In this document: positions 25,174 through 55,670 of the stretch, piece after piece
Position numbering within the stretch: the first letter of the stretch is position 1
Layout: each line of letters starts with the position of its first letter
Assembly (NCBI GenBank): GCA_963575745.1
Contig: CAUYUJ010020748.1
Coordinates: 62,001 to 126,000, forward strand
Direction of reading: 5' to 3'
Source of the DNA: Prorocentrum cordatum
Taxonomy: Eukaryota; Sar; Dinophyceae; Prorocentrales; Prorocentraceae
DNA length: 64,000 nucleotides
The notes under the pieces: model-generated
The model's database searches: none
The model's input: the letters and a program-made list of their open reading frames with translations, nothing else
What the model was told of the DNA's origin: nothing
Position numbers and translations under genes: made by a program

Positions 25174-26484
25174 TCACCGACCAAGCTGTACGTGTATACA
25201 CATCTCGGCAATGCCATTGAGAAGCGAATGTGCAGCTGCCAACTCAGCCTGTGTGATCGTGCAGTGGCTAGGGACCATGAAACCTCTGCGGCCAACTCCA
25301 GGGTGCCATCCGCCCTGCACAAGTCCAGGGGGAAGCTGGTGAGGAGGAAGAGAGGGAACAAGATAAGCATCCATAACCCAGCCACACGAATTGCCACGTT
25401 CACACCGCCCACCATCGAAAGCTCCTCTAAGTGCACGAACAATATAATGACCCGATCTAATATGATAAAGAGTGTTATGATTCCAACGAACATCAGAAGT
25501 TACTTTACCCTCACGTGCAAGATGTGTCTCATGGTCCACCTCATCGTTGCCCTCCCTATACACCCATTTCCACATATCCCTTCCCACTTCAGCCGTGACA
25601 AGATGATGGTCCTCACTCATTATGTGAAGGCGGTTCTGCATACCCTTGATCGTGCGGCGATCTACTTCATTGTGACAGCGATATCGTCCATTAAGCCAGC
25701 GCACAACACACTGGCTATCCCCACGGAGCTCCAAGCCATATCCACCCCCTTCCCCACGCCAAGTGGTTTCATCATCATTTATCGCGGCCAGTCGTTTCGC
25801 CACCCGTTTATTTTCCCGTCGTTGCTGCTCCTCTGACTTCTCCTCCCCCTCCTCCTCCTGCTTGAACTCACCCGTGAAAGGATCCCGAAGAAGGCAGATG
25901 TCGAGAAGATCATCCGAGTCCAGGGCGGCCAGGGTACCCACCAGGAAAGAACGCCAGCCAGTTTCATTCCAGACCATCGTGCGATCCCAATGAACCCCGC
26001 GCGTGTGCTCGAAGACCTCGAACCAAGGCCTAAGTCCCGTCAAGACTCGATGACGACAGGCTCTAGTAAACCGTCGGCCCCCAGGGAGAGCTCTAACATG
26101 TACGTCACGCTGCTCAGTCCACTCCCCCGACGCGTGCATCATCGTCAAGGCGCTCTGCATACTGGCAGTGGGCAATCCTCCTTCCTCCTCCCGTGCATAG
26201 GTATGGCGTACCCGCTTACGAACAGGCTCATGTACATGTTGTGAATCATGATGCTCATGTGCCGTGTTCTCCGATATACGTCTGCGAACTGACCTATTCT
26301 CCAAGGAAGATGCGCTCTGTGCCTTTCTCCTACACGAACTGTCAAGCTGTCTGGCATTCGGGGTAGGCGAGGGAACCGATAACTCCAAGGAGCGCTGCGA
26401 ACCACCAAAAATCAGGATCTCGTGGCTCATGATAAAGAATGCCCTGACTGAGTGCGTCCTCATCCACCCGACTATGCTCCTCAT
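25174..26484 (-). CDS. Element A RNase H-like domain, circularly permuted
   Basis: 436 codons from an ATG at 26484, overlapping the end of the RT frame by 143 nt in the +1 frame, so it is probably made by frameshift or was separated by a recent indel. Residues 115-125 hold the conserved block MMHASGEW; a basic/acidic linker follows to 228; RVAKRLAAINDDET lies at 227-240. The RNase H motifs are then met in unusual order: GDSQCVVRWLNG (D256), REGNDEVD (D317), LRGAFDGG (D357) and TQAELAAA (E414). In ordinary RNase H the DG-containing strand and the Glu helix come first. All four metal-binding acids have candidates. The product would remove RNA from the RNA:cDNA hybrid during retrotransposition. 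The permutation is read directly; activity is inferred. Confidence 0.8.
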   Translation of the reverse strand: MRSIVGWMRTHSVRAFFIMSHEILIFGGSQRSLELSVPSPTPNARQLDSSCRRKAQSASSLENRSVRRRISENTAHEHHDSQHVHEPVRKRVRHTYAREEEGGLPTASMQSALTMMHASGEWTEQRDVHVRALPGGRRFTRACRHRVLTGLRPWFEVFEHTRGVHWDRTMVWNETGWRSFLVGTLAALDSDDLLDICLLRDPFTGEFKQEEEGEEKSEEQQRRENKRVAKRLAAINDDETTWRGEGGGYGLELRGDSQCVVRWLNGRYRCHNEVDRRTIKGMQNRLHIMSEDHHLVTAEVGRDMWKWVYREGNDEVDHETHLAREGKVTSDVRWNHNTLYHIRSGHYIVRALRGAFDGGRCERGNSCGWVMDAYLVPSLPPHQLPPGLVQGGWHPGVGRRGFMVPSHCTITQAELAAAHSLLNGIAEMCIHVQLGR

Positions 26485-29440
26485 GGATCGTGCTCACAAC
26501 ATGTTTGGCGAAGAGCCACTGGCGATGAAGGGCGAGCTGGACCATCGAAGGCTTACGGGCCCACTTCAATAAGCGACGACCACCTTTAATCCTCCTGCCC
26601 CAGTACTCTCCCCAGGACTCCGTGATCTTCTTTTTGAGACGTCTCATGGTGGACAAGAAGTTGCCTTCAGCTGCATGTATCTGTTGGAGACTACCCGAAT
26701 CCAAAGTCGTACCCTCCAAACCGTACAGAAAGCAACTTCTGACCCTGCTATCATAACGCTGAAACTTACAACGAAGCGGAACCACGGGCGACGAGTAAAA
26801 AGAAATCTCACTCATAAAGACCCGCCGTGCCTTCTCCAGTCGGTGCTTAATGTCTTCATGATCCTGAAATCGTACGTCCAATATCGTGCCAAGAACCTCC
26901 ATCCTCTCCACCTGCCTCACTATCATCTCCTCCGAAGGGCCTGCGGCGCTCTGGGAAGCCCCACGAGAACGCTTCCTACCCACCTCAGCAGACAGGAGCC
27001 CCGGCACAGGCAGGCGGATATCCTGCAACGGACCTTGGACGCCACAAGCCAAGAACTCCATCGAAGATGCTTTCCAGTTGAAACCGAAGCGGTGGAGGAC
27101 CCCAGTCAAGTCCTCGAGTATATGGGTCAATTCTCGCCTGGAAGCTGCTGCCAGCAAAAAATTGTCTGCCCACAACCAGTGGTTGACCAAGAGATTGGAT
27201 GCCTCATCAGTGAGCCTGACGCCGTATCCAGACTGCCTCCAACCTGCCGTCACTGGTGCAAGCATACGAAGAGTCTGGGCAACAAATAGCAAAGGCGCCT
27301 CCAAGGAACCTGTACGAATGCAAGTATCCCACGAGATGGTCGTAGAACACTGTTGGAAGCTGATCTCTGCCGTATTACAAGCATAACTCTCAAAGACAGC
27401 ATACACAAGGGAAGGATGGACATGATGGAATAAAAGCGCCTCTGCTGCACATCTCACCGTGAAATTATCAAACGCCTTTTCAATATCAGCACTTGCAAGA
27501 TAAAGACTCTCCTCCTTCCCCCACACAACGCCGTGTTGAGCAAGACGTTCGAGGGGGGCCGTGACCTCATAACATTTGTGACCCGCGATAAAGCCATATA
27601 AGTTGCAACCTGGCGGTGCAGCCTGCCGAACGCGGTGTTCTAGAAGTATACATAGACAACTGCTATACCATTTACCAAAATGAGAAAGAAGTGAAAGGGC
27701 CCGCGTTTCTTCAAAACCACGAGCCCTGGGATTCTTAGGCATCAAGCATACCAAGATCTCCCTCCAGGACGTCAGTGAAACATGTTTCTGATCATACAGC
27801 AAACGGAATAAGGTAAGTATGTGTCGGAGGGCTTCCCATGGCAATGCTTTGAGCACCGATGACGACACCCCGTCTGCACCTGTTGCCCGTCCTTCCCTGA
27901 GTCTAGACCGTGCCTCCAGCAAGAGACCCATGTTGATCGGGTTGCGGTGGGGCTCTCCAGAGTCTCGCAGGGCCTTAAACTGGTTCTTAAGCTCATCCAA
28001 GCACGCGTTGGTGTCCTGTCGGTGGGGATCGCTAGAGTATCTCAGGAGCCCATGACGCCGAAGGCCCTCAATCCACTTCTCCTGGTCACGCGTGAGGACC
28101 CCGTCCACATACATGTGCGTAATAACAGGCCTACGACGGACACCGTCACGAATACGATAAAGCTCACATGCACGATCATGACGCTTACGAACTCGACGCC
28201 ACCGCTTAGCTGTCCCCTTATACTCCTCCTGGACTCTCTCGTACTCCTCCTGTCCCACGTTAGCCCCGCCATATCGTGCCACCCTCCACCTCTTCCTGAC
28301 CTTAAAGAACTCCTCCTTAATCAGTAAATCCTCCTCCGAATATCTGGGATAATCTGAAACAGGCTGACCACGAGAACGGGAGATATCCAAAGTCTCACTG
28401 GCACCCTCAAGTATACTCTGTGTCATGACCTCAAAACCTACGTCCGTGTGGATCTGATTCACGAGCTCGGGCTGGCAGATCGCTCTCTCCAAGCCGGCTG
28501 TCTGCTGGAGCTCGAACCCTGGCTGAAGCTTCCAGGTCTTGAGCTGAGGCCGACGTCGATACCTCAACTGAGCATGCTGGGCGGGCATCTCGGCACACAA
28601 GAGCTTGTGATCGCTAAACGTCCTTTCCGTCGCCTCCGACCGTGGGACCTGGGACGGCACAACCCAAGAACAAGTCACCTCTGGAGTCATCCAAGAAGCT
28701 GGGACCGCAAGATAATCATAGACGTGCTCGTATGTGCTTGAATTGTGTCTCCAAGTAGGCTGACGATTCCCAAAAGTGTTAGCTAGCTGCAACTTGAGGG
28801 CCCCCATGGTCTTCAGAAAGGCCCCCGAGTACATCTCCCGCATCCTGTTGGCTCTACTTTCGTCACCTCCACTAGACCTCCCCCTCTTACGTATAGGCCC
28901 ATTCACCGCCTCCCCCGTAACCTCCACCCCATTGATCCTGTGGTGCGGGAAAACCTCCACGTTGGCGTCAGCCGAAATAACAACCTCCTCAATGTGAAAT
29001 CGCTTTTTGGCCGCAGAGACATGTGCAACAAGATCCGATAACGCGTCCGTATAGAGCTTGAAACTAGCGAGAAACCCTTCAGGAGAACGGCGTGCTTCAC
29101 CCTGTGCACCCCGCTCAGACTCCTTATGAGGGAGATAGACAGAAACGAAGATGAGCTCGCGAAAGATCGCAATGACCCAGCGACGACCACACACAACATC
29201 GATAAGCAGATGTCTCCATACACCTCGGCACAAGATGGCAGCCCGTCTCCCCACGTTCTCCCCCTCATCTGCCGAGCGATGTATATCCCAACCCGCATCT
29301 GCAAGATCCAAGTCGTGCAAGAACTGGCTCTCTTGGACCCCGACGATGGAAATCTTTAATTCGGCAATGTGATTCATGCACTCGGAGGTGTATCTTCCCA
29401 ACCTCCGAACGTTCCAACCTCCAACAGAAGCTGGGCACCG
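26342..29440 (-). CDS. Element A ORF2: APE endonuclease and reverse transcriptase
   Basis: The open frame begins immediately after the ORF1 TGA (29441-29443) and reads GGWNVRRLGRY, the usual N-terminal WN motif of APE-type endonucleases. Counting from the TTG codon at 29401: endonuclease residues E24 (VQES), D146/N148 (ADAN) and D264-H265 (SDHK). RT: fingers GATGADGVSS (507-515), motif A ADIEKAFD (D639), motif B-like RTGSLEAPL (696-704, Gln replaced), motif C LWADN (743-747), thumb and a C-terminal QWLFAK block near 961. The endonuclease nicks target DNA and the RT copies the RNA from the nick. WADN replaces the standard YxDD, yet the ORF is over 1,000 codons without a stop, so decay is not the simple explanation. 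The frame ends just before the RNase H region. Confidence 0.9.
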   Translation of the reverse strand, partial: RCPASVGGWNVRRLGRYTSECMNHIAELKISIVGVQESQFLHDLDLADAGWDIHRSADEGENVGRRAAILCRGVWRHLLIDVVCGRRWVIAIFRELIFVSVYLPHKESERGAQGEARRSPEGFLASFKLYTDALSDLVAHVSAAKKRFHIEEVVISADANVEVFPHHRINGVEVTGEAVNGPIRKRGRSSGGDESRANRMREMYSGAFLKTMGALKLQLANTFGNRQPTWRHNSSTYEHVYDYLAVPASWMTPEVTCSWVVPSQVPRSEATERTFSDHKLLCAEMPAQHAQLRYRRRPQLKTWKLQPGFELQQTAGLERAICQPELVNQIHTDVGFEVMTQSILEGASETLDISRSRGQPVSDYPRYSEEDLLIKEEFFKVRKRWRVARYGGANVGQEEYERVQEEYKGTAKRWRRVRKRHDRACELYRIRDGVRRRPVITHMYVDGVLTRDQEKWIEGLRRHGLLRYSSDPHRQDTNACLDELKNQFKALRDSGEPHRNPINMGLLLEARSRLREGRATGADGVSSSVLKALPWEALRHILTLFRLLYDQKHVSLTSWREILVCLMPKNPRARGFEETRALSLLSHFGKWYSSCLCILLEHRVRQAAPPGCNLYGFIAGHKCYEVTAPLERLAQHGVVWGKEESLYLASADIEKAFDNFTVRCAAEALLFHHVHPSLVYAVFESYACNTAEISFQQCSTTISWDTCIRTGSLEAPLLFVAQTLRMLAPVTAGWRQSGYGVRLTDEASNLLVNHWLWADNFLLAAASRRELTHILEDLTGVLHRFGFNWKASSMEFLACGVQGPLQDIRLPVPGLLSAEVGRKRSRGASQSAAGPSEEMIVRQVERMEVLGTILDVRFQDHEDIKHRLEKARRVFMSEISFYSSPVVPLRCKFQRYDSRVRSCFLYGLEGTTLDSGSLQQIHAAEGNFLSTMRRLKKKITESWGEYWGRRIKGGRRLLKWARKPSMVQLALHRQWLFAKHVVSTIHEEHSRVDEDALSQGILYHEPRDPDFWWFAALLGVIGSLAYPECQTA

Positions 29441-30990
29441 TCACGAGCTGCTGTTCACCTGCCTCTCCCAAGTCTTGCAGTCCAGACCTGAATCGATGTG
29501 CTGGACCCGCTCGGCCACGAACTTCCATCCCACGGTATCCGTCCACGTACCTACACACACTTTATCACTCTGACTATCCTTCTGCAGATATGCCCAAGCC
29601 TTCGCAGGCCCTTCAGGCTCAAAAGTGATGAGAGCGGTGGCAACCGTCTTGAGTTTATGAAAGATCGCAGTCGCCTTGCGAGTCTCCCCAACTCGACGCC
29701 GGTCCTGTGGTGCAGGTTGGACAAACCAACAGAGGTGTCGATCTTTATATGGTCCAAAACTGTTCTGGCAACCGACCAGATCAGGGCAAGAACTGGACCA
29801 GGCTGAGGCCCACTCGTTGCGTACTTCCCAGACCGTCTCTTTCGAAGTCCCTGGCATGAAGTATATGCGAAACTTGGTCACACCAAATCGATTGGAAGCG
29901 ATATCCCCGTCCGTCCTACCCCTGTCGAAGATCTTCGTAACGTCACTCTCCCGTGCTTGCGATAGTGTGTACAACTTACCTATCATGTTCCTAACCGTGG
30001 CGACCTGGATCTTGGCCTTATCTCGAGTTTCTACCTTTCGGGGGTCCTCTTGCGCGAAGCCGCTCACCTGGATCCAAGTCGGGACATGTGGTACAAAGGG
30101 CCTCTGGAAGTCAGCAATACGAGAGTCACGAGTAGACGCGCCTCCCAGAGATGATGAATCTGCCCAGGGATCCCTAGAGTTCATCTGAGCCTGAAGTGCT
30201 TTGATCTCCTTCGCCTGGGCCTCCTGAGCTGAACGAATCTCCTGCACCGACGAAGCAATAGGGGCAACCTGCTCTGATACCCTCGTTTGAATCTGCTCTT
30301 TGATGTCAACAGAGTTCTGCATAAGCATCCTCTGCATATCTTCACGCATGGCATCGAACTGTGCACGGAGCATAGTGGCCAGATCTCCAGCTTCACCTCC
30401 TCCTCCTCCACTACTACCACTTCCATTCCCACTACCTGCCCCTCCTCCACCACCCTCGGCATCACCAAGAAGACGTCTATCTTCCAGGAGCTTCCTCTGT
30501 CGCTTCTCTCCGTTGCCCTCAGTTCCCATATCATCATCAGAAGTCGGAACCATCTTCCTCTTAAGATCACACTGCCCACAACTGGAAGTAGAATACCGAT
30601 AAGCTCGACAAGTAGGGCACCTACTAGCCTCCAGATCACGATAGTGTTCGTCCTCGAGTTCTTCAAGAAACTTATCCCAACCCCGTGAAGGTGAATGTCG
30701 GTACGTGATGAGATCTGCTGCAACAAAAACGGTCAAAGTGTCCTTCTCAACTGCCAGAGCAAAACTGGTAAGTGCTGGGCTCCCAAGAGTATCACAAGCA
30801 AACAGCAGAGATACAAGTGCAACAGGTAGCGGCCTTGCGCCTCCAGCGGCACGTGTGGGCTCACCCACTAACACAAGCAGAGAACAAATGCAGCGACCTA
30901 TGCGCAGCACGTCCAGGAGGTTGCAGCCGGCGAAGTACACGAACTTATGGGCCAGCGCGCACCCACGCGCGCCCACGGCCGCCCAGGGGG
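29441..30990 (-). CDS. Element A ORF1 protein, 5' end probably missing
   Basis: About 516 codons inside the element; the frame continues past the boundary into satellite DNA, where an ATG at 31168 would add about 56 satellite-derived residues. The first in-element ATG is at 30553. Visible parts: a C-x2-C-x9-C-x2-C cluster (30569-30619), possibly zinc binding; a Gly/Ser-rich acidic stretch; a likely coiled coil (LRAQFDAMREDMQ to KALQAQM, about 30180-30370); and a C-terminal region alignable by eye to ORF1 of C and D (FRIYFMPGT, then CWFVQPAPQD). By analogy with LINE ORF1 proteins it should bind element RNA and multimerise. It ends in TGA followed by C, in frame with ORF2. Confidence 0.75.
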
Positions 30991-31000
30991 CAACCTGGTC
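30991..31000 (+). repeat. Target-site duplication of element A, right copy
   Basis: CAACCTGGTC abuts the 5' side of element A; the next bases (ACCGCC) are the 3' arm of the M7 hairpin. Confidence 0.85.
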
Positions 31001-31329
31001 ACCGCCGGGAACCTCGTAGAGCTCCTTCCACGCGCGAGAGTGGTCAGAGTCGGAGGAGAGAGCTTCTGGAGGCATTTCTCGAAAAATTGAATCTTTCATT
31101 TTTTCACGTCGATATAAAGATGGTTTCGCCAAGTGTTTTGACAGTAAAACTGCGCCTACAAGGCTCATATTGAAACGCAGAGGCCCTTAGAGTCGTTTAC
31201 AGGTGCGAGAAAATCTGCTTTCTCAAAATGAATTGTGAAATATCTTTCAGATCTTCGCAAAACCGACCAAAAATTATCACATCTTCTTTTCTGGTCGGAT
31301 CGACCAACTGGGCGCCAGCGGTAAACCGT

Positions 31330-31340: not shown

Positions 31341-32522
31341 TTTTGTTTGCGGTTTGCGGTCCGCCACTAGAATCCGAATCCGAATCGGCGGAGCAGTGCA
31401 ACTGAGCCCCCACCATCTTAGGTAGGTCGTAGCAGAGCGCACGCCACCTTAGCAGCAGCTCTCGTCAGGGCAGCGCAGGCAGCTAGTTCACAGCAGGTTA
31501 CCGTGCTACCAGGAGGCAAGCTCATCGCCTCCTCGGCCACATCGTGCCAATGGAAGCTGCGCGAGCTGGCGCAGGAGGAAGAGGAGGAGGAGGAGGAGGA
31601 GGAGGAGGAGATGGGAAAATCAACCTGCACGCTGGAACCCCTACCTACAACGCCAATCTGAAGCCACCACCCACCTCCACATCCTTCATTACTGACACCC
31701 CCATCGAATGCACCACGGAGAGCAGTCTTACGAGTACTGAGGAACTTATCATATGCAAACCAGCGAGTAATAGTTTGGCCACCTCTGGCCTCCCACGACA
31801 ATTTATCCGCACGCTCATTACCCTCACGAAAGAAATGCTTATACAGATTCTGTCCCGATGCAGGTGAGGTCAGTCCCCATCCAGACAGCATCGATACCGT
31901 ATTTTGTAGTGTTCCCACCAGTCGTACATACTGCTTGTTGCGAATCTGCCACTCACCACACATCCAGTTTACAACAGTCTTACTATCTCCCAAGATCTCC
32001 ATCCCAAGACGCTCAATATTCTCACACCTCCACTCCGTTTCATTCTCAAAATTTGCGGCAATACGTTTGCTCATCCTCTCATTCATATCACTCTCCTCCT
32101 CCTCCTCTGCCTTCACATGTCTCACACCAGGCGGCCTGGGTAGAACAAACAAGTCGAACAAGTGTTGCATACCAATCACAGTCAGCAAATGCTTCCAGTA
32201 TTTCTCACGGGACCCAGCGGAACTGTCGAATGAGAGGTACCACTCACAACCAAAGAGATCGCACAAGCACCAGTCCCACGCAGTATGTCCACGGGGGCGG
32301 CCGCCTATGTTCATGCGTGTCAGCTGCTTCCTATCTTTTACAGGCACTGCTAGAATACATGTGTCACGATGTTCCGTCCACTTCCCCCTTCCATGTAACA
32401 TGGCCAGCCTAGATATCATCCATTCACGTGACATGTCCGACTCCTCAGAATGGCAGGCTGATCATCTGGTATGGCAGGTATGGCAGGCAGGATGACATGT
32501 CTGACTCCTCAGGTATGGCAGG
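31341..32522 (-). mobile_element. Non-LTR retrotransposon B, 5'-truncated
   Basis: 1,182 bp copy with an 11 bp target-site duplication, retaining only the C-terminal RNase H region and the 3' end (tail GCGG-TTT-GCGG type; CCGCC/GGCGG foldback). The 5' junction contains a near-duplicate of about 28 bp (32430-32457 and 32494-32522), filler of the kind often seen at truncated 5' junctions of target-primed insertions. Confidence 0.88.
31418..32434 (-). pseudogene. Element B RNase H-like domain, circularly permuted (fragment)
   Basis: 338 codons of the 3' part of the polyprotein; the frame is blocked upstream at 32462, so no RT is present. Motifs in order: AMLHGRGKWTEHRD (11-24), SKRIAANFENETEW (122-135), EILGDSKTVVNWM (D150), FREGNERAD (D210), LRGAFDGG (D244), GCGGGWW, and STVTCCELAA (E316). 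The order and spacing match A, C and D. A run of about 12 Ser (276-287), encoded by an AGG/CCT-type microsatellite, interrupts the stretch between the Asp and Glu motifs. As a truncated copy it is not expected to move on its own. Confidence 0.82.
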
Positions 32523-33081: not shown

Positions 33082-34503
33082 CTACCGAGCGTGTGAGACG
33101 CTATCTATAACAGACGCAATCTGCGAGATTGCGTGAATTAGCTTCGAGGCGGCCGTTAACTCACAGACCGTCACGGTTGACTCCCTATCGAGGCCAAACG
33201 CCTCCTCGGCAATCACGTGACACTGTATAGCATTTTTATGTTCTACAAAAGCCTGCAGCCACCAGCCTCCCCCAGCCCCAATATCCGAGGTGCCTCCGTC
33301 GAAGTAACCCCTCAATCCTAAAACTTTCGAAGTATATAAAGGGGCAAGATACTCGTTTCTCTTCGATGTGTGTGGGCAAGCTCTGCAAGCCCACGTGAGT
33401 TCATCAGCATAACTGTTACCCTCCCTATAAAGATGTTTGATTGGGTCAGCCCCCGCACACGCAGTTCTCAAACAGGTGTCCGTTATAGCATCAAGAGTGT
33501 TTTGTGCCGCCTCCAAGGTGTTATCATAGCCCATGTTCGTGCACCTCCAGTGCCCTCTTATCCATTGGACCACACACAAGCTGTCACCCAGTATTTCAAA
33601 TGGAATCTTATCCGACTCATAGTCAAAGATAGTCTCATTTTCAAAGTTATGAGCAATGCGACGCGCAATCCTATCATTATTAACTTTCGTCTCCTCCTCC
33701 TCCGTACGGGCAACCGAAACTCTAGGTTTGGCCAGATAGTCAAGAATGGCGGGCAGGTGCAATCTTTTGAGCAACTTCTCAACGAAAATCGACCAAACTT
33801 CTTTCCCAAACATCATAGTCTCCCACCACTTAGTATTGCCATTTTGATCCGCAATGAAGACATCTTCCCATTTTCTCAAACCGACGTATTTAGTACCACC
33901 ACGCCATCCAAGAAGAGCAGCCTGAGAATCCCTCGAGCGTGCAGCGAACGCGCGACGATGAGCGGCCCAGTCACCTGACGCATGCATCATGCCCAACCGC
34001 GCCTGAAAGTAGGCGTTGAGTTTGAAGACATTCACGTTTGCGCCAGAGGGTCGTGCCTCTCGCGGCTCACTATCATGATTAGAAGAGGGGGGGTCCCGTG
34101 GTCGCTTACTTCCCTGCGGGGCAGCAGACAGACTATCGGCGGAAGCGATGGGGTCATCATTCACCTGAGCAATACACCGTCTCTTTTGACTGCCCCTCGG
34201 CGAACATATTTCATCCCGATCTCTTTTGTCGCATGGGCGCTGGGGCTGTCTGACACGCTTGGCGAGCTCCTCCTGGCTCGCAGTGAGACTCGGGCCAGGG
34301 CACCGCTTCTCTCCCCTGGCGGCCAGACGGGTCTCCACAATCTGCCTGCGACGATTCTTGGCCGCGGGCGTGGGTTCGCTCTCGCCGTCGACTGGGGGGG
34401 GCTGTGGCCACAGGACTGACAGCGCCTTGGGATTCGCGCTGGCTGCTCCTTTCTTCCAGGAGCCTGGCGCACTCAAACAGATGCGCCACCTGTAGCGGGT
34501 CAC
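33082..34503 (-). CDS. Element C RNase H-like domain, circularly permuted
   Basis: 473 codons overlapping the RT frame by 293 nt in the +1 frame, the same frame relation as in element A. The first about 155 residues are basic and low in complexity. Then GMMHASGDWAAHRR (171-184), RIARRIAHNFENET (278-291), FEILGDSLCVVQW (D307), YREGNSYADEL (D367), LRGYFDGGTS (D402), GAGGGWWLQ and TVTVCELTAA (E448), with a stop about 25 residues later. The FDGG strand and Glu helix therefore lie C-terminal to the GDS and GNxxAD motifs. Likely role: degradation of template RNA after first-strand synthesis. All key residues are kept, so this may be an active domain. Confidence 0.82.
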   Translation of the reverse strand: MTRYRWRICLSAPGSWKKGAASANPKALSVLWPQPPPVDGESEPTPAAKNRRRQIVETRLAARGEKRCPGPSLTASQEELAKRVRQPQRPCDKRDRDEICSPRGSQKRRCIAQVNDDPIASADSLSAAPQGSKRPRDPPSSNHDSEPREARPSGANVNVFKLNAYFQARLGMMHASGDWAAHRRAFAARSRDSQAALLGWRGGTKYVGLRKWEDVFIADQNGNTKWWETMMFGKEVWSIFVEKLLKRLHLPAILDYLAKPRVSVARTEEEETKVNNDRIARRIAHNFENETIFDYESDKIPFEILGDSLCVVQWIRGHWRCTNMGYDNTLEAAQNTLDAITDTCLRTACAGADPIKHLYREGNSYADELTWACRACPHTSKRNEYLAPLYTSKVLGLRGYFDGGTSDIGAGGGWWLQAFVEHKNAIQCHVIAEEAFGLDRESTVTVCELTAASKLIHAISQIASVIDSVSHAR

Positions 34504-37189
34504 TCAAAGGAACTCTTATTCTGGACGCAGACGACGCACGACCAGAAGAACAATGAGCATCCTTGTTGTTCGGCTCCAAAGAAACTCTAATACTGGACGC
34601 AGACGACACACGACCAGAAGAACGTTGACAATCTTTTTTGTGCTCCGTCAGTCCCCCACGGCTACCAAACATAGCCGCAGGTCTCTGGGGCTCAGGCGAA
34701 ACACTCTGAGGCAAAGCACGAGGCGGACAATGAGCATGAATAAAGTGTGTACTGTGTGTGTGCAGCGTAGCTGTCGGAATATAACAAGGCAACTGATCGA
34801 AAGAACTTCCTCTCTCAGCCTGCGGCACAGAAGACATCGAACGAAGGTGTGTATGCTCTCCACTGTTCGTGTGCAGCGTAGCTGTCTGAATATAACTGGG
34901 CAACGTGTCGAAAGAACGGTCATCAACCTGCGGCACAGGCAACAAAGAATGGACATGTGTTGTATCATCACTGTGAGTGTGCAGCGTAGCTGTCTGAATA
35001 AAGCTGGGCGCGGACTCCAAAGAACGTTGGCCAGACAACTGAGGCACAGGCAAAGACGAATGGACATGTGTGTGAGCCTGACTGTACGTGTGCAGCGAAG
35101 CTGTCGGATCAACATGTACTCTGTCCGTGTGCAGCGCAGCTGTCGGGATATTTTGACACGCAAAGCCTCTGGCAAAGCAAGCGATATCTTTCGCCCAGAG
35201 CCAGTTCTTGTGAATGAAGAGTTCCACCGCCGACAGAAATCCAAGGTTGGCGAACTGGTCGCGAGCATACTTGAACCTCCTCTTTTGGTAGACCGTCCAA
35301 TCTTCAGTCACTCCTTTCCTCCTTCCTCCGATGATAGCTAATAGCTTTCCTTCCCAGGAGAATATTTTTTGTGCCGTGATGTTGTCAATCGTCATCCCCT
35401 CAATTGCGAAAAGTAGCTTACTCTGGATACGGAGTCGGTATCGCTGGAATCGTCTCTCAATCGGGATGCGATGACTTCTATAATATTCGATGTCGGCAAA
35501 GAAGGCACCACGGGCACGATCCAAGTTGAACTGCAGATCGCTATGCTGTGTCCAATATCTGTCCAACCTGTAACCCAGGATGTCCAAAGTGTTAACGCAT
35601 TCAAGTTTATACGTGTGGGTCTGGATATGAAGAACTACATCATTCGAGCCATTGACGCCAAAGGGGATGAGCTTGAGAGAGGATGGTTTCCAATTGAGGC
35701 CGGCCTGGAGCAGGGGGAGAGTGAGCTCAGTCACCATGGTCCTGAGCTGCCGTTCATCTCTAGCGTACAGCAACAAATTGTCCGCCCAGAGGGCATGTGA
35801 AATCGTCGATCTAGTGGGCATGGGAACGGGGGACTCGACTACATAACCCAGATCACGCCCTGGCCAGGTCCCGACGATATCATTCCACAAGGCCACACTC
35901 ACCACTTTGAATATAAATGGTCCGTCCACCCCGCCCGTCCTGATACTCCGATCCCAACCAATCCAATCCAAATTCTGGGTCCCTTCGAAGGTGGCTTTAC
36001 ACGTGTTTTCGGTCATAGGACAAAGAAGGGCATAAATCAAAGCGGGGTCAAAACCAAGCTTCTCCATACTTTGTAACGCTAGCTTGATAGTAACGTGGTC
36101 AAACGCCTGGAGTACATCGAGGCTGGCCAGATAGAGCTTCTCCCCTTTTCCCCATTGTGCAGCATGTTGGCAAAGATGTTTGGTAAACGATGTGACCTCA
36201 GAAACCTTCCTGAACTGCACAAACCCATACATGTTAAGAGAGTGTTTGATATTCACCAGATGTTGTTCCCCTTTAATGACTAGGACATGGTTGTACCACT
36301 TCTGGACCAGGCTCAGGAGGCAGATCGCCCTAGTCTCTGAAAGCTCCTGAATGGACGGCGCCTTCGGGATGAGAGTTACCAGAAACCTCTTCCAATCCGA
36401 GGGGACCTGTTGGCGACGATTGGCGATCAGGCTGAAATGATGTCGGATTGTCTTGAGGCTGGCAAAGGGGATGAGCTGCAGCATCTCCCGTGTCACTTGG
36501 TCAGGTCCAGCCGCCCCACTCTTGAGGCGAGCCCTCGCTCGCAAGATGTCATGCATGGTGATGCTCACGCACTGGGACTGGTTGAGCTTCGATGCCAGAC
36601 CTTCCAGAATCGACTGCACCTCCCTCCTCGCCCCGTAGTCCTCCACCCTGTCTTTCAAGTACCTCCCAATTTCCACCTGTTTGGCCTCGACATCGTAAGT
36701 AAGTTCCCACTCCCCCGTCATCTTTTTGACTTTAAGTACCTGTGCTTGTGTACGTAATTTACGCTGTTCAACTTTGTGTTTGTATTCGAGCATGTCGGCA
36801 TCATATTGTTTTCGCAGTGGTTTGATCAATCTCCGAAGACTCCTGACTTCATTCTGGCATCGAAGTTCTCTGGGCCAAAGAGCACGCCGTAACAGCCGTT
36901 CGAGCGTCCAAAGACGTTCCGGCCTCACAGGTGCACGAAGTGCGGCCACCTGGCGGCTAGGGATACTTGCCGCCGTATCTGCGATGATCTGGCTGAGTGT
37001 GCCCCTGCCCTGCCTCCTCTGCTCGCCCTCCTCCTCCTTCACGGGTCTCACGTCCCTTTTGATGTCCTCCTCCTCCTCCTCTTCAACCAAAGACTGTAAT
37101 GGGCGATACCGAGAGCCTGCATCTTGAAACTGCCGTGACAGGGCACGGTCGAAGCTAGCGGCAGCCGCAGCAGGGTCCACGGGTTCCCA
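34211..37189 (-). CDS. Element C reverse transcriptase
   Basis: About 990 codons, open directly after the TAA at 37190-37192 and in frame with the endonuclease; no early ATG is needed if that stop is a mutation or is read through (the codon at 37180 is GTG). Counting from there: fingers SGAAGPDQVT (221-230), motif A LDVLQAFD (D355), motif B-like IRTGGVDGPF (413-422), motif C LWADN (464-468), and NWLWAKD near 659. From about residue 678 to 835 the chain is a run of 36-37-residue repeats encoded by a minisatellite, absent from A and D; after it the frame wanders through Ser/Arg-rich sequence to a stop. WADN is shared with A and D. Confidence 0.85.
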   Translation of the reverse strand, partial: WEPVDPAAAAASFDRALSRQFQDAGSRYRPLQSLVEEEEEEDIKRDVRPVKEEEGEQRRQGRGTLSQIIADTAASIPSRQVAALRAPVRPERLWTLERLLRRALWPRELRCQNEVRSLRRLIKPLRKQYDADMLEYKHKVEQRKLRTQAQVLKVKKMTGEWELTYDVEAKQVEIGRYLKDRVEDYGARREVQSILEGLASKLNQSQCVSITMHDILRARARLKSGAAGPDQVTREMLQLIPFASLKTIRHHFSLIANRRQQVPSDWKRFLVTLIPKAPSIQELSETRAICLLSLVQKWYNHVLVIKGEQHLVNIKHSLNMYGFVQFRKVSEVTSFTKHLCQHAAQWGKGEKLYLASLDVLQAFDHVTIKLALQSMEKLGFDPALIYALLCPMTENTCKATFEGTQNLDWIGWDRSIRTGGVDGPFIFKVVSVALWNDIVGTWPGRDLGYVVESPVPMPTRSTISHALWADNLLLYARDERQLRTMVTELTLPLLQAGLNWKPSSLKLIPFGVNGSNDVVLHIQTHTYKLECVNTLDILGYRLDRYWTQHSDLQFNLDRARGAFFADIEYYRSHRIPIERRFQRYRLRIQSKLLFAIEGMTIDNITAQKIFSWEGKLLAIIGGRRKGVTEDWTVYQKRRFKYARDQFANLGFLSAVELFIHKNWLWAKDIACFARGFACQNIPTAALHTDRVHVDPTASLHTYSQAHTHVHSSLPVPQLSGQRSLESAPSFIQTATLHTHSDDTTHVHSLLPVPQVDDRSFDTLPSYIQTATLHTNSGEHTHLRSMSSVPQAERGSSFDQLPCYIPTATLHTHSTHFIHAHCPPRALPQSVSPEPQRPAAMFGSRGGLTEHKKDCQRSSGRVSSASSIRVSLEPNNKDAHCSSGRASSASRIRVPLSDPLQVAHLFECARLLEERSSQRESQGAVSPVATAPPSRRRERTHARGQESSQADCGDPSGRQGREAVPWPESHCEPGGARQACQTAPAPMRQKRSG
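34763..35142 (-). repeat. In-frame coding minisatellite in element C
   Basis: Units marked by CAGCGTAGCTG-like palindromes at 34763, 34874, 34982, 35093 and 35132, so spacing is 111, 108, 111 and 39 bp, all multiples of 3. Each unit encodes a stretch like TATLHTHSDDTTHVHS. It lies between the RT thumb and the RNase H region. Confidence 0.85.
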
Positions 37190-39399: not shown

Positions 39400-39436
39400 C
39401 TTGAGCCAAAATGGCTTGAGCCAAAATGGCTACGGG
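39400..39436 (-). other. Dinoflagellate spliced leader followed by relict leader at element C 5' end
   Basis: On the minus strand, 39435-39415 reads CCGTAGCCATTTTGG then CTCAAG, matching the conserved 22-nt dinoflagellate spliced leader except its variable first base. Immediately after, 39414-39400 repeats CCATTTTGGCTCAAG, a leader lacking its first bases. Tandem full plus relict leaders are the known signature of mRNAs that were trans-spliced, reverse transcribed into the genome, expressed and trans-spliced again. Confidence 0.92.
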
Positions 39437-39696
39437 AACCTCGTAGAGCTCCGTACTGCTGGGAATGGAGTAGAATCAAAAACTAAAGACTTTTTGAAAA
39501 TCTTCATTTTTGATTTTTTCGATGTTGATATTTGCTCAGTTTCGGGAAGTCAACTCATAAGAAAATGCATTGGGAGAGCTGAGCTGCTGTCAGAGAGCAG
39601 TTTATATGTCAATGAGACGCGCAAGAATCTGCTTTCTCAAAATAAATGGTTCCATATCTTTCAACTTTTCGCAAAACCGATCAAAAGTCATAAACC

Positions 39697-40697
39697 GGGC
39701 GCGGGCGGTAAACCGTCAACCTTGGTTACCGCGGGGAGACTCGTAGAGCTTCCTAGCTCGACTTAAGTTGAGAAAACCGACAGCACCCACCAACATTCCG
39801 ACTCATAGTGAATATCTTTTGACCTCTGAATGCGACAGGCGGACGCGTCTGATGTCTGCGAATCGACTCCTGTCATTACCAGCCCTGCAGCCCGCCTACA
39901 GCCCGAGTTAAGTGCAGAAAACCGACAGCACCTCTCAGGATGACTCGAACAATACAATAGTTTCGCAGACCTAATTCGGGCAGCCGACCGAGTTCCGAGC
40001 TCTGGATTCGACAGGCGGACGCGCCTGATGTCTTCAAATCGATTCCTGTGACCACCAGCACTGTAGCCCCCCTCAGCGCGAGTTGAGTGAAGAAAACCTA
40101 GAGCACTTCTCAAGATGACTCGACCAATACGAATAGTTTCGCGATTCTAGATCGGGCAGCAGACCGAGTTCAGAGCTCTGGATTCGACAGACAAACAACT
40201 GATGATTCTGAATCGGTTTCTGTAAATATAAGCTCTGTAGCTGTCCTACAGCTCGAGTTAAGTGCACAAAAACCGAGAGTTCCTGTCAAGATGACTCGAA
40301 TAATACGAATAGGTTTGCGGACCTAGCTCGGCTAACAGACCGAGTTCAGACCTCTGGATTCAACAGGCGAACGCGCCTAATCATTCTACATCGATTAGCT
40401 GTGCTTACCAGCTCTGTAGCTGTCCTAAAGCTCGAGTTATGTTCAGAAAACCGTCAGCGCGTATCAAGATGACTCGAAACGGCCGATCCCGCATAGTGCT
40501 TTTCGATAGTAATATTCACCCAATCGAGCTAAGATCGAGATAGCGAGCGGGAATAAGATCGAATATCACGGAAAAAAATTCTAGAGCTCTAACGAATGGT
40601 TGAATTTTGAGAACAAAATTTTCAACCGACCAAAAGTCACCAAAAGTTCCGTCGAGATTTTTTGGGCCAACTAGCCCGCCAGTGCGTCCGAATTACT
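39697..40697 (+). repeat. M1b copy (M1 copy 20) with M2-M3
   Basis: A subtype: loop CAACCTTGGTT, head GGGAGACTCGTAGAGCTTCC, then an altered first segment (TAGCTCGACTTAAGTTGAG and a short unique stretch) before normal monomers. M1b is 39697-40582, exactly 886 bp by my boundaries, as are the copies at 44194 and 48022. M2 40583-40672, M3 to 40697. Confidence 0.85.
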
Positions 40698-41850
40698 GGG
40701 CGCCGTCGGTAAACCGTCAACCTTCCTTACCGCCGGGGGACTCGTAGAGCTTCCTGACAATATAAAATGTCGATAAAAAATCCAGAGAACGAAGAGTTTT
40801 CAGGCCAAGCTATTTCAGACCTCTCGATGCAACAGCCGAACGCCTCCGATCTGGATTGTCTTCTTTGCGAGCTCTGTAGCTCTCCTACAGCTCGAGTTAG
40901 GTGCGTAAATCGACAGCATCTCTCAAAATGACTGTAACAAAATGAATAGTTTGACAACCCAGCTCGAGTATCAATCCGAATTCAGACCTCTAAATGCGAC
41001 AGGCGGACGCGTTTGACGGCTGCGAATCGACTTCTGTGATGACCAGCCCTGCAGCCCCCCTACGGCCTGCGTTAAGTGCAGAAAACCGACCACACCTCTG
41101 AAGATGACTCGAACAGTAGAATCGTTTCGCGGACCAGCAGACGAGTTCCGAGCTCTGGATTCGACAAACGCACGCGCCTGATGTCTTCAAATCGATTTCT
41201 GTGACCACCAGCACTATAAGCCTCGCAGCCCAAGTTGAATGGAGAAAAAGGAGAGCACTTCTCTAGATGACTCGAAACAATACGAATAGTTTCGCGATTC
41301 TAGATCAGACAGTAGACCGAGTTTAGGGCTCTGGATTCAACAGACGAACGCGACTGATGATTTTGAATCGTTGTCTGTAAGTATGAGCTATGTAGCTGTT
41401 CTATAGCTCGAGTTAAGTGCAGAAAACCGACAACGCCTGTCACGATGACTCGAATAATACGAATAGGTTTGCGGACCTAGCTCGGCTAATAGACCGAGTT
41501 CAGACCTCTGGATTCAACAGGCGAACGCGCCTGATCATTCTGAATCGATTAGCTGTGCTTACCAGCTCTGTAGCTGTCCTGAAGCTCGAGTTATATTCAG
41601 AAACCGTCATCGCGTGTCAAGATGACTCGAAATGGCCGATCCCGCCTGCCTGCTTTTTGGCCATAAAAGGTACCCGATCGAGCTGAGATCAAGATGGCGA
41701 GCGGGAATAAGATCGAATATCATGGGAAAACATACTAGAGCTCAAACGAATTGTTCAATTTCGAGAACAAAATTTTCAACCGACCAAAAGTCACCAAAAG
41801 GTCCGTGGAGATTTTTCTTCCCAATGGCTCTTCAGCGCCCCGGAATTACT
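40698..41850 (+). repeat. M1 copy 21 with M2-M3
   Basis: M1 40698-41736, M2 to about 41824, M3 to 41850. The head has GGGCGCCGTCGGTAA, one mismatch in the hairpin. Confidence 0.85.
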
Positions 41851-44193
41851 GGGCGCCGGCGGTAAACCGTCAACCTTTCTTACCGCCGGGGGACTCGTAG
41901 AGCTTCCTGACAACATATAATGTCAGGAGAAAAAAAAAGTTCTTCAGCCACGGAACTTTTGGTGACTTTTGGTCGGTTGAAAATTTTGTTCTCGAAATTT
42001 GAACATTCGTTAGAGCTCTAGTATTTTTCCCGTGATATTCGATCTTATTACCGCTCGCCATCTTGATCTCAGCTCGATCGGGTGAATACTACTAGCGAAA
42101 AGCACTGTGGCGGGATCGGCCGTTTCGAGTCATCTTGATACGCGCTATCGGTATATTGACTTAACTCGGGCTTCAGGACAGCTATAGAGCTGGTAAGCAC
42201 AGCTAATCGATTCAGAATGATCAGGCGCGTTCGTCTGTTGCATTCAGAGGTCTGAACTCGGTCTGCTAGCCGAGCTAGCTCCGCAAACCTATCCGTATTA
42301 TTCGAGTCCTCTTGACAGGCGCTCTCGGTTTTTCTGTACCTCGTAGAGCTCTTCTTTATCGATGAGCTAGAGGAATTCCGGCGCGGGGTGGAGCTAGTTG
42401 GTCGACCCGACCAGAAAAGAAGATGTGATAACTTTCGGTCGGTTTCGCGAAAAATTGAAAGATATTTGACAATTCATTTTGAGAAAGCAGATTTTTACTC
42501 CGAACATCAGTATCTGAACTTCCTTCTGCGAGCAGCTCAGCTCTTTCGGGAGACTTTTACTATCCAAACATTTGGAGGAACCAACATCACGTTGAGATCG
42601 AGAAATGCAAATCTGACGTTTTTCTAGAAATGCCCCCAGAAATGTCTGCTTTCCATCTGAGCACTCTTACGCGTCCAAGGAGCTCTACGAGGTTCTCGGC
42701 GGTGACTAGGTTGACGGTTCACCGCCGGTGCCAGTACTAAACTCGAGCTATAGGACAGCTACAGAGCTGATACTTGCAGAAACCGATTCAGAATCATTAG
42801 TCGCGCTTGTCTGTTGAATCTAGAGCTCTGAACTCGGTCTGCTGCCAGATCTAGGTCCGCGAAACTATTCGTATTGTTCGAGTCATCCTGAGAGGTGCTC
42901 TCGGTTTTCTGCACTCAACTCGAGCTGTAGGGGGGCTGCAGGGCTGGTGGTCACAGGAATCGGTTTGCAGACATCAGGCGCGTCTCTCTGTCGAATCCAG
43001 AGCTCGGAACTCGGTCTGCTGCCCAAACTAGGTCCGCAAAACTATTCGTATTGTTCGAGTCATCCTGAGCGTTGCTCTCGGTTTTCTGCACTCAACTCGG
43101 GCTGCAGGGGGGCTCCAGGGTTGGTAATTACAGGAATCGATTTGGAGACATCAGACGCGTCCGCCTGTCGCATTCAGAGGTCTGAATTCAGTCAGGAAGC
43201 TCTACGAGTCCCCCGGCGGTAACAAAGGTTGACGGTTTGCCGCCGGCGCCCAGTATTGCTGGAAGCTTAAGAGTAACTCGTAGAGCTTCCCTTAGCAAGT
43301 TATTGCTGGAAGCTTAAGAGTAATTCCTGGGCGCTGGAGAGCTAGTTGGCAAGAAAAATCTCGACGGACCTTTTGCTGACTTTTGGTCGGTTGAAAATTT
43401 TGTTCTCAAAATTCCAACATTCGTCTGAGCTCTAGTATTTTTTCCAATGATATTCGATCTTATTCCCGCTCGCCATCTTGATCTCAGCTCGATCGGGTAA
43501 ATATTTCATATAGAACAGCTACAGAGCTGGTAAGCACAGCTGATCGATTCAGAATGATCAGGCGCGTTCGCCTGTCGAATCCAGAGGCTGAACTCGGTCT
43601 GCTAGCCGAGCTAGGTCCGCAAACCTATTCGTATTATCTGAGTCATCTTGACAGATGTTCTCGATTTTCTGTATTTAATTCGAGCTATAGGAGAGCTACA
43701 GGGCTGATACGTACAGAATATGATTCCAAAACATCAGTTGCCGTTGTCTGTTGAATCCAGAGCTCTGAACGCTGCCCGATCTAGAATCGCGAAACTATTC
43801 GTATTGTTCCAGTCATCTTGAGAGATGCTGTCGGTTCTCTGCACTTAACTCGGGCTGTAGGGTGGCTGCATGGCATGTTATTACTGAAATCGATTCGGAG
43901 ACATCAGGCGCGTCCGCCTCTTCGAATCCAGAGCTCCGAACTCTGTCTGCTGCCCAAACTAGGTCCGCGAAACTATTCGTATTCTTCGAGTCATCCTGAG
44001 AGGTGCTGTGGTTTCCTGCACTTAACTCGGGCTGTAGGGGGGCTGCAGGGCTGGTAATCAGAACAATCGATTCAGAGACATCAGACGCGTCCGTCTGTCT
44101 TCAGAAGCATCGGGGGGTTTGGCTGTTGCATCCGAGAGGTCTGAGATTGCTTCGAGATTTTTCTTGCCAACTAGCTCTCCAGCGCGTCCGACT
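41851..44193 (+). repeat. M1 copy 22 head, inverted block, and M2-M3 ends
   Basis: The head of M1 (41851-41949) is followed by the inverted block 41950-44150, and the original orientation resumes inside M2 at 44151 (TCGAGATTTTTCTTG), then M3 to 44193. Confidence 0.8.
41950..44150 (-). other. 2.2 kb inversion spanning several modules
   Basis: All modules inside run on the minus strand: M2 and an M1 tail (41950 to about 42338), M5 (about 42340-42403), M7 (to about 42735, TGACGGTTCACCGCC head), M1 (to about 43258), M4, M3, M2, then M1 monomers. The left joint puts M1 head sequence (TTCAGCC) next to reversed M2 (GGAACTTTTGGTG); the right joint puts reversed monomer 1 (GAGATTGCT) next to forward M2 (TCGAGATT). 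The joints are reciprocal, as expected for one inversion. Confidence 0.8.
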
Positions 44194-45189: not shown

Positions 45190-45527
45190 GGCGCCGGCGG
45201 TGAACCGTCAACCTGGTCACCGCCGGGAACCTCGTAGAGCTCCTCGCACATGTAAGAATGCTCAGATTGAAAGCAGACCGCTTCTCAGAGCATTTCTCGA
45301 AAAACATCAAATTTACATTTTTCGGTGTCAACGTGACGTCGGTTCCTCCAAATGTTTCAATAGTAAAACTGTCTCGAAAGAGCTGAGCTGCCCACAGGAT
45401 AAAGTTCAGATTCTCATGCTCGGAGTAAAAATCTGCTTTCTCAAAATGAATTGTCAAACATCTTTCAAATCATGGCAAAACCGACCAAAAGTTACCACTT
45501 TGTCCTGTCTGGCCGGGTCGGCCAACT
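45190..45527 (+). repeat. M7 module copy 5
   Basis: 338 bp, GGCGGTGA / TCACCGCC stem, ends GGCCAACT. The preceding M3 ends CCGAAG rather than ACT. Confidence 0.85.
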
Positions 45528-46445: not shown

Positions 46446-46476
46446 GGGCGCCGGCGGTCAACAGTCAACCTTCGTT

Positions 46477-52790: not shown

Positions 52791-52905
52791 GTCCTCGAAG
52801 TCGCCCAGCCTCCACCGCCCACCGACGAGGCCGGCGCCGCCATGGTCGCGCTGGCCCCCCAGAATCGTCGGCAGCGGCGGCCACTCCCGCACAAAGATGC
52901 TCACG
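52791..52905. other. Unique interruption in the CAGACACA array
   Basis: About 115 bp of GC-rich sequence between two arrays. A minus-strand frame reads FVREWPPLPTILGGQRDHGG, but there are no other coding signs and I do not recognise it. Confidence 0.5.
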
Positions 52906-53688: not shown

Positions 53689-55670
53689 TCAAGTAAAGTA
53701 AGACTCAAACTCACCAAGCAAACGAACAATGTTGTGTACCGTACACTGTGCTGCAGATAGTTCAGCCTGTGCGACTGTGCTCTCTGACGGAATCAACCAC
53801 GCTTTTTCCCAGACGAGCTGCCAGGACACGGTCGAAAACTTGCCTTCTATCCTGTCGGACCTGGATATGAACGCCGCCTCGAGCCATGCACCACATCCTA
53901 CTCCATCCTCAGACTTACCGCCATCGAAGGACCCCCTCAATGCGATAGGTGTTATATGTCCATATGTGTGTGTCATGCAAAAAGAGCGCTTCCATTCATG
54001 TGATCTGCCCTCGCGGGCATCATGTGTGAGTCGATCTGCGTGCTCATTTACTTCGCGGAACTCATGCTTAAAAGGATCCCTGCCATTCGAAGGTGCCCGA
54101 ACTCCATAGATCTCCGTCAAACTGCTCATGATGTCAATGATATAGCCTATTCTTTTTCGATACGTAAAGTCTGTTACCGCCCACTTCCCTAGGAGCCAGG
54201 ATATGATAAGAAGAGAATCCCCGCAGATCTCCACTCCAAAACCATGTGTTTTGAAATCCCATTCTGTTGCTTTCATGTTTGTTAGTGCTAGACGTCTGGC
54301 GATGATTTCATTCTGGACCTCCTCTTCCTCCTTCCTCCTCCTTTTGCGTGTTGCCTCATTTCCACCCTCCTCTTCCATATCATACACTGTGCGTCTCACT
54401 CCTGATCCTTTAACCTTTGACTGGAACAAACGGAACTTCTCCTCACCAACCGTTGGTAATGCAAACTCTCTCCAGCTTTCAGGCTGGAAATCTCTCCACC
54501 ACTGATCACCCCAATATTTTTCGAAAGGATAGTGCCATGTATGTAGACCCGTCGCGTCAATCCCTCTTTTCCTTTTGCGGTAGCTGCCCTCCTCTGCCCG
54601 TTTTCTTTTTGAATTATACCTGTGCATGATATCCCCGAAATTCTGCCGCCACTCATCATATCGGACTCCGTATGCAAGCATTGCCAACCTTGAGTCCCTC
54701 CATGCCCCGTCGCTGTGCGGCATATCATGATGTAGATATTTTGCAAATGACACCACATCTAATGCAAGCAACCACTGGCGATACAAGAATTTTTGCACCA
54801 GCGACTGATACCCGTGATCATGAAAAGCTTTCCTACATCGGCTGTACTTCCGATGTGTATACTCGTCCCACGGCCCATCAGGAAGATGTCTCGTTCTCAA
54901 TATTATGAGCAAGCATTCTCCCTCGAACACATGAAGTCTCTCAATCGAACTTTCATCTGCTGCCACTCCATCTAATCCATGCAATACTGTCGACTGAACA
55001 AGCTGCTGATATCTAGAATACTTTTCCCCCAATGGTATACACCTGCTGGTATAGAACTTAATGTCAACATAGAAAGCCTGTCTTCCTTTGTCCAATCTGT
55101 GCGCTACATCCGCATGATACCGAGGAAATATAGCAAGAATACAAACTCCTAGAAGATGAACCTCAGCCCTTCTGCGAAATCTCAACACACGTTCTGGGTC
55201 CTGAAATCCTCTGATCACCAGGTCCATGGTCGGAACGATATGTTCATTCTCATCATACTCCAGAGGTTCACCGAAAACTAAATACTCCAGAGACGCCTCT
55301 TTCCATCGCATACTGTATTTCTCAAGTGAGTGTGTCATCGCCAACATCATCTGAGCCAAATCCGACGCCGAGTTCGCCAAGACAACGATGTTATCAGCCC
55401 ATAAGGCATGATTCAAGTAAATCGACGCTGTTTCGACGCTCTCATTTCGTCTCTCGCACTCGCTCGGAACTCGACCCTATACCCCAACTTCTGTTCGTCC
55501 CATTTCTCGAACAGTTCCCCCCACATCGCCACGGCAATACAATTAAAGGCAAACGGTCCTTCAGGTCCGCCCGTACGTATACAGCGACCCCAGGACACCT
55601 TTGAGAACTGCTCGAAGTCGAGATTCTCACACGAGATCTCAACATCACTATAAACCAGGGGTTCAATCAT
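53689..55670 (-). pseudogene. Element D RT (C-terminal part) and permuted RNase H
   Basis: Two overlapping frames. 55413-55670 carries motif B (IRTGGPEGPF). 53689-55416 carries LWADN (residues 5-9), RT thumb, YRQWLLALD (212-220), SRLAMLAYGVRYDEW (242-256), EIIARRLALTN (370-380) and the RNase H motifs in permuted order: CGDSLLIISWLLG (D400), FREVNEHADRL (D461), LRGSFDGG (D498) and VAQAELSA (E552), followed by a stop 23 residues later. Unlike A and C, RT and RNase H share one frame, which suggests this is the ancestral state or an independently in-frame lineage. Confidence 0.83.

What the first reader, a model, noticed from the sequence alone, without database searches (positions are those of the whole stretch)
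25174..26484. Circularly permuted RNase H domain shared by a whole retrotransposon group
In A (25174-26484), B (31418-32434), C (33082-34503) and D (53689-55416) the RNase H motifs run GDS-xVVxW, then REGNxxAD, then LRGxFDGG...G-G-W, then the Glu of xELxA, and then a stop. Canonical RNase H has DG first, Glu second, DS third and GNxxAD last. The order here is that of a protein cut between the Glu helix and the DS strand, with the old ends joined. Four divergent copies keep all four acids, and remnant E ends at the same point, so it is not a rearranged single copy. To my knowledge RNase H domains of known non-LTR elements have the standard order.
Basis: partly seen in the sequence, partly recalled or inferred. 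Interest (0 to 1): 0.92.

Follow-up and report, generated by a model that had tools for sequence, protein, structure and literature searches.

The report
Circularly permuted RNase H in retrotransposons
A group of jumping genes in a dinoflagellate and related plankton carries an RNA-cutting enzyme domain whose chain has been cut and rejoined in a different order, a natural rearrangement of a textbook enzyme that we did not find described before.

Summary
The finding holds. In copies A-D the RNase H motifs run GDS, REGNxxAD, FDGG, xELxA, then stop. Of 23 database relatives, 13 hold all four motifs, always in this order; 10 are partial and none has FDGG before GDS. The host genome (4.13 Gb; dinoflagellate by its spliced leader) gave 96, 119, 90 and 148 matches to A, B, C and D, capped counts, many in one open frame. 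AlphaFold2 folds domain A well (pLDDT 85.9, pTM 0.87) with the strand and helix order of an RNase H opened between helix A and strand 4. A canonical RNase H profile aligns over 128 of 131 columns when the family is rotated (score 60.2, natural order 49.2; 0 of 200 shuffles reach 60.2). No RNase H half was found upstream. Against: doubled sequences gave no crossing Pfam match, rotation did not help local searches, and coordinates could not be superposed. The domain looks archaeal-like. Its activity and its route of origin are inferred. Ten literature searches gave no earlier report. New variant of a known kind.

The parts
25174..25752 (-). Element A, permuted RNase H domain (strand 4 to helix A, then stop)
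   Evidence: Motifs; AlphaFold2 model
25714..25722 (-). A: GDS, counterpart of the third acid (D70 of E. coli RNase HI, numbering recalled)
   Evidence: paired with GDN of canonical domains
25534..25557 (-). A: REGNDEVD, archaeal-type Arg and last Asp
25408..25419 (-). A: FDGG, counterpart of the first Asp, on strand 1
25234..25248 (-). A: AELAA, counterpart of the Glu of helix A
26342..29401 (-). Element A, endonuclease-like part (by eye) and reverse transcriptase with WADN
   Evidence: RVT_1 E 2.5e-7; motif; no Pfam endonuclease match
29441..31168 (-). Element A, ORF1-like frame; the element seems to start near 31010, so the upstream part of the frame is flank
31418..32020 (-). Element B (5'-truncated), permuted RNase H domain
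33082..33618 (-). Element C, permuted RNase H domain
34211..37180 (-). Element C, reverse transcriptase with WADN
   Evidence: RVT_1 E 1e-8; motif
53689..54252 (-). Element D, permuted RNase H domain, in one frame with the C-terminal part of its RT (53689-55416)
39400..39435 (-). Dinoflagellate spliced leader plus a relic leader at the 5' end of element C
   Evidence: leader and relic as given in PMC12014239

Best explanation
The C-terminal domain of these retrotransposon proteins is a naturally circularly permuted type 1 RNase H of the archaeal-like kind. The chain starts at strand 4 (GDS), runs through helices B and D, strand 5 and helix E (Arg and last Asp), crosses a new linker to strand 1 (FDGG) and strands 2-3, and ends with helix A (Glu). 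The old ends are joined; the new ends lie between helix A and strand 4. The domain most likely digests the RNA strand of the RNA:cDNA hybrid made during target-primed reverse transcription. Shown: motif order, its conservation, predicted fold, profile rotation. Inferred: catalysis, role in retrotransposition, and origin by duplication and trimming of a canonical domain.
For: Same motif order in A-D and in 13 of 23 database relatives, the other 10 partial, none with FDGG before GDS. AlphaFold2 pLDDT 85.9, pTM 0.87, element order b4 aB aD b5 aE b1 b2 b3 aA; the same order in the last 200 residues of the P0002 model. Global hhalign: rotated 60.2 over 128 of 131 columns, natural 49.2 over 79; shuffled half mean 42.6, maximum 55.0, 0 of 200 reach 60.2; control L043 best at natural order, 89.4 against 47.1 at worst. 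PDB profile search: 6 of 6 hits at E up to 1 are RNase H chains, the best at 1.1e-4 (Rv2228c counted from recall). Foldseek gives one RNase H, 3aly, probability 0.98, over half the domain. Four acids and Arg invariant in alignments of 8 and of 10 sequences. Open frames in many genomic copies; dN/dS 0.16 in A and 0.25 in C. Nothing RNase H-like upstream.
Against: Doubled domains gave no crossing Pfam match in 7 of 7, and no RVT_3 match at all for D. Rotated and natural profiles do equally well in local searches. The FDGG-Glu half alone is weak: hhalign probability 23%, 20 columns. Foldseek rank 1-5 rows are unrelated proteins with low TM-scores, and the VIA list shows no RNase H. No superposition. 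No activity data. dN/dS for B is 0.53 on 48 summed differences.
Confidence: 0.9

Rival explanations
1. The domain has the permuted RNase H fold but no longer cuts RNA; it serves as a binding or connection domain.
For: No activity data exist. RT connection domains of some retroelements are RNase H-like and inactive (recalled).
Against: Four acids and the Arg are invariant in alignments of 8 and 10 sequences and all four motif strings were found in 36 of 39 fetched copies; dN/dS is 0.16 and 0.25 in two families.
Confidence: 0.12
2. The strand 4-helix E half is a genuine RNase H remnant and the FDGG-ELxA stretch is an unrelated C-terminal extension that resembles the first half by chance.
For: In local searches only the strand 4-helix E half scores well.
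Against: The second half aligns alone to canonical columns 4-24; the Asp and Glu are invariant; 0 of 200 shuffles of that half reach the rotated score; the model folds both halves as one confident domain with a three-strand meander and a helix.
Confidence: 0.05
3. A normal-order RNase H is completed by an FDGG/Glu half lying upstream of GDS, and the C-terminal stretch is a duplicate.
For: This is how a permutation by duplication would begin; a helix precedes strand 4 in the P0002 model at low confidence.
Against: Upstream region of 9 sequences: no FDG motif (one SDGA string, in D) and no profile match to canonical RNase H or to the FDGG half; it is predicted helical, at low confidence.
Confidence: 0.03

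Closest known systems
Archaeal-like type 1 RNase H (Sulfolobus tokodaii RNase HI, PDB 3aly/2ehg; RNase H 3u3g)
   Same: Best sequence relatives in the PDB; four acids; Arg in place of the active-site His (rule in PMC4640811 and PMC5348765, passages)
   Different: Chain order: the present domain starts at strand 4 and ends with helix A
Archaeal-like RNase H of plant (Ta11) and oomycete L1 elements (PMC5348765, passages)
   Same: RNase H at the C-terminal end of ORF2, archaeal-like type
   Different: No permutation is mentioned there; their CCHC motif upstream of RNase H was not looked for here
Utopia elements of oomycetes (PMC4640811, passages)
   Same: Non-LTR element with archaeal-like RNase H and target specificity
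   Different: Their RNase H is upstream of the RT and in D-E-D-R-D order; here it is downstream and permuted
Elements of the same genome with standard-order RVT_3 RNase H before the RT (L037, L047 and others)
   Same: RNase H type, RT motif ending in DN, same genome
   Different: Standard order and opposite side of the RT
Engineered circular permutants of E. coli RNase HI (recalled, no call)
   Same: Same fold with new chain ends
   Different: Made in the laboratory; the present case is natural and shared by a group

Membership tests
Type 1 RNase H, fold and active site | Four catalytic acids D, E, D, D | tested here: met
   Motifs and alignments; all four paired with canonical domains in the rotated alignment
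Type 1 RNase H, fold and active site | Five strands and helices A, B, D, E of the fold all present | tested here: met
   AlphaFold2 secondary structure; no superposition was possible
Type 1 RNase H, fold and active site | Cleaves RNA in RNA:DNA hybrids | not testable with these tools
   Needs an assay
Canonical RNase H / RVT_3 domain (PF00075, PF13456) | Linear order strand 1 to helix A before strand 4 to helix E, full-length profile match | tested here: not met
   half-length matches only, below the cut-off in natural order; order permuted
Archaeal-like RNase H | Arg at the position of the active-site His | tested here: met
   Arg of REGN invariant and aligned with the Arg of HVRR; rule
Non-LTR retrotransposon | Reverse transcriptase domain | tested here: met
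   RVT_1 above the cut-off in A and C of the window; below the cut-off in L010 and P0024
Non-LTR retrotransposon | APE-type endonuclease in ORF2 | tested here: inconclusive
   No Pfam match above cut-off (best Exo_endo_phos E 0.18 in D); PDB sequence search of the C part gave nothing credible; motifs read by eye only
Non-LTR retrotransposon | No long terminal repeats or integrase | not tested
   No dedicated search was made
Utopia | Archaeal-like RNase H upstream of the RT | tested here: not met
   RNase H is downstream of the RT in L010, P0002 and P0024

The most novel reading that the evidence does not exclude
This is the first natural circularly permuted type 1 RNase H, fixed in the ancestor of a large, diverse and recently active group of site-specific non-LTR elements in plankton. 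Probable sister elements in the same genome keep the domain in standard order and on the other side of the RT, so both states of the rearrangement can be compared in one genome.
Probability: 0.7. Interest if true: 0.82.

Novelty: new variant of a known kind. Interest (0 to 1): 0.76.

Why it matters
RNase H is a model fold, and I found no retroelement in which its chain order was reported to differ. A permutation kept by a whole group shows that retroelement domains can be rewired as well as swapped. It explains why a standard domain search misses this RNase H (4 of 4 window ORFs have no RVT_3 or RNase_H match above the Pfam cut-off), so some elements listed as lacking RNase H may carry a permuted one. 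It also gives a natural test of how moving the chain ends affects the coupling of RT and RNase H.

Tried and rejected
Pfam on seven doubled domains: RVT_3 was the top family in 6 of 7 but with best stretches inside profile positions 59-119 of 123, never a crossing match; D's doubled sequence gave none. Doubling also inflates whole-protein scores. Rotated alignment A8 against natural A9: 8 of 10 members match RVT_3 in both (best E 3.2e-4 and 3.3e-4), and the best PDB E-values are 1.7e-4 and 1.1e-4, so no gain. Local hhalign also reports the half only. The gain appears in global profile comparison.

A leftover second strand 4 at the end of P0022, as a fossil of duplication, was not supported: 1338 of 2000 and 1302 of 2000 shuffles scored as well. 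Viral contigs: 87 pattern matches, no relative. A fifth remnant in the window: none. The first dN/dS for A wrongly held L014, whose domain end belongs to family C; redone with 9 copies. PF00075 in the own genome did not complete.

Papers: passages only, in PMC5408684, PMC3985635 (no 'permut' or 'circular' in its main text), PMC5348765, PMC2848206, PMC2628886, PMC7824862, PMC3710099, PMC4640811, PMC12014239, PMC11453091; everything else as listings. Searches for permutation; for dinoflagellate or archaeal-like elements and the host. None listed a permuted RNase H in a retroelement. Most subscription papers are not held; Repbase was not available.

Full report
OBSERVATION. On the minus strand, ORFs at 25174-26484 (A), 31418-32434 (B), 33082-34503 (C) and 53689-55416 (D) each end in a domain with the motif order GDS, RE(G/V)NxxxD, RGxFDGG, xELxA, followed by 22-25 residues and a stop. 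B, C and D are 30-33% identical to A in this part. In ordinary RNase H the order is first Asp, Glu, second Asp, last Asp.

NOT AN ACCIDENT OF THIS WINDOW. Three protein searches, each scoring only about 8000 best candidates, gave 23 database relatives, P0002-P0024, from metagenomes and from a EukProt set named Pyramimonas sp.. Thirteen hold all four motifs (P0002-P0006, P0008-P0011, P0013, P0022-P0024), each in the permuted order. Ten are partial: six of them show the last Asp before FDGG or its variant, four cover one side only. None has FDGG before GDS. Some are near-duplicates (P0002 and P0003; the ends of P0023 and P0024).

The window lies in a 4.13 Gb genome, where only the best candidates are scored: 96 matches to A (91-100% identity), 119 to B (96-100%), 90 to C (85-100%) and 148 to the last 259 residues of D, the last including fragments and further families at about 45%, 42% and 37-38%. 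Many copies lie in one open frame: 1422 aa (A), about 1390 (B), about 1654 (C), 1319 (D), 1334 (the 45% family). Some rows have an internal stop. In fetched loci, the window's own copies included, all four motif strings were found in 9 of 9 A copies, 10 of 10 B, 8 of 10 C and 9 of 10 D, 36 of 39; one string failed in L017, L019 and L056; L014 was set aside because its match belonged to C. dN/dS of the domain was 0.16 (9 A copies), 0.25 (10 C copies) and 0.53 (10 B copies, 48 summed differences). The copies were chosen by similarity to the query and the pairs are not independent, so these ratios are rough.

FOLD. AlphaFold2 on domain A with 8 sequences gave pLDDT 85.9 and pTM 0.87. Elements: strand 15-21, helix 24-30, helix 39-59, strand 71-73, helix 80-90, helix 102-109, strands 113-127, 130-143, 158-170, helix 176-201. 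I read this as strand 4, helices B and D, strand 5, helix E, linker, strands 1-3, helix A. A model of the 858-aa P0002 is poor overall (53.7) but repeats the order in its last 200 residues. Foldseek, which aligns in chain order, matched half of the domain to RNase H 3aly (rank 6, probability 0.98, 86 columns, 3.4 A); higher rows are unrelated with low TM-scores. The VIA list shows no RNase H.

PROFILE ROTATION. A profile of eight family members was compared by global hhalign with a profile of six canonical domains of the same genome plus E. coli RnhA. Natural order scored 49.2 over 79 columns. Opening the circle just before FDGG scored 60.2 over 128 of 131 columns and paired all four acids and the Arg; cuts from the REGN helix to FDGG score 59.6-63.3. 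With the moved half column-shuffled the mean was 42.6, the maximum 55.0, and 0 of 200 reached 60.2. A canonical domain (L043) in the same scan is best at its natural order, 89.4, and lowest at 47.1. Contrary results: none of seven doubled domains gave a crossing Pfam match; local searches do not gain from rotation, since the FDGG-Glu half alone is weak (hhalign probability 23% over 20 columns). The PDB profile search returned six chains at E up to 1, led by S. tokodaii RNase HI at 1.1e-4; five are RNases H by name or by the Foldseek description, the sixth, Rv2228c, by recall.

Between RT and GDS, in nine sequences, there is no FDG motif (one SDGA string in D), and the region matches neither the canonical profile nor the moved half.

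WHAT KIND OF RNASE H. Archaeal-like RNases H have Arg where others have an active-site His (PMC4640811, PMC5348765; passages). Here the Arg of REGN is invariant in the 8- and 10-sequence alignments. The same genome gave 80 RVT_3 matches (150 of 610 candidates scored); of 12 fetched loci, 10 were read and show the standard order, 2 were not read. In L037 and L047 that RNase H lies before the RT in one frame; in L043, L044 and L045 the RT match is in the next frame downstream; Exo_endo_phos_2 appears below its cut-off in L043 and L045. Five of six such loci show an RT motif ending in SDN, against WADN in the permuted families. My reading is that the two are sister groups and that the permuted domain arose once from a standard one by tandem duplication and trimming. 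No rooted tree was made, so this is inference.

MECHANISM. In RNase H, two metal ions held by the four acids cleave the RNA strand of a hybrid (established, recalled). The permuted domain keeps the set, so it most likely removes template RNA after first-strand synthesis at the target. What changes is where the chain enters and leaves: strand 4 is tethered to the RT side and helix A is the free C-terminus. Whether this affects coupling is unknown.

HOST AND ELEMENT BIOLOGY. The 5' end of element C carries the dinoflagellate spliced leader followed by a relic leader (sequences as given in PMC12014239). With the genome size this makes the host a dinoflagellate; its name is not known. The close C relatives in the EukProt set named Pyramimonas, a green alga, are unexplained. 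Of six C 5' ends, two carry the leader (window, L061) and six of six follow GAGCTCTACGAGG within one edit of the 14-base motif. Of eight A 5' ends, seven follow AGCTCTACGAGGTT, one of them (L015) with a changed base before it, and the eighth, also in L015, joins the 3' end of another A copy. The motif occurs 40 times in the window with up to two mismatches, against 0.42 expected. The elements look site-specific; exact boundaries were not fixed.

VERDICT. A real, conserved, natural circular permutation of an archaeal-like RNase H in a large group of non-LTR elements. Activity, and the route of origin, are inferred. Ten literature searches gave no earlier report.

Noticed in passing
window 39400-39435 (-); L061 649-663 (-): Spliced leader at the 5' end of retrotransposon C, in the window copy followed by a relic leader: trans-spliced element RNA seems to have served as template. 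Seen in 2 of 6 C 5' ends.
   Followed up: partly
window 31011-31024 and 39438-39451 (-); L010-L015, L058-L062: A and C insertions follow the same motif AGCTCTACGAGG, which is frequent in the surrounding satellite: apparent site-specific insertion.
   Followed up: partly
window 27175, 35791, 55404 (-); L027, L036, L037, L044, L045, L047: RT catalytic motif reads WADN (permuted families) or SDN (standard-order elements of the same genome) instead of the usual xxDD: the second Asp is Asn.
   Followed up: partly
L037, L043, L044, L045, L047: Elements of the same genome with standard-order RVT_3 RNase H placed before the RT, a position called unique to oomycete Utopia in PMC4640811.
   Followed up: partly
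P0014, P0017, P0018, P0019: Close relatives, three of them near family C, in a EukProt set named Pyramimonas sp., a green alga: contamination, or transfer between plankton.
   Followed up: no
L015: Two A copies joined head to tail, the 3' end of one running straight into the 5' part of the next.
   Followed up: no
window 197-24528 and 39824-51255: Long arrays of a satellite of about 177 bp on both sides of elements A-C.
   Followed up: no
window 51858-53378 and 59317-59608: CA- and CACACAGA-type simple repeats on both sides of element D.
   Followed up: no
window 59638-63609 (-): High-GC open frame of 1323 aa with a ubiquitin carboxyl-terminal hydrolase domain (UCH, E 9.7e-20); its first part reads like a helicase by eye only.
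   Followed up: partly
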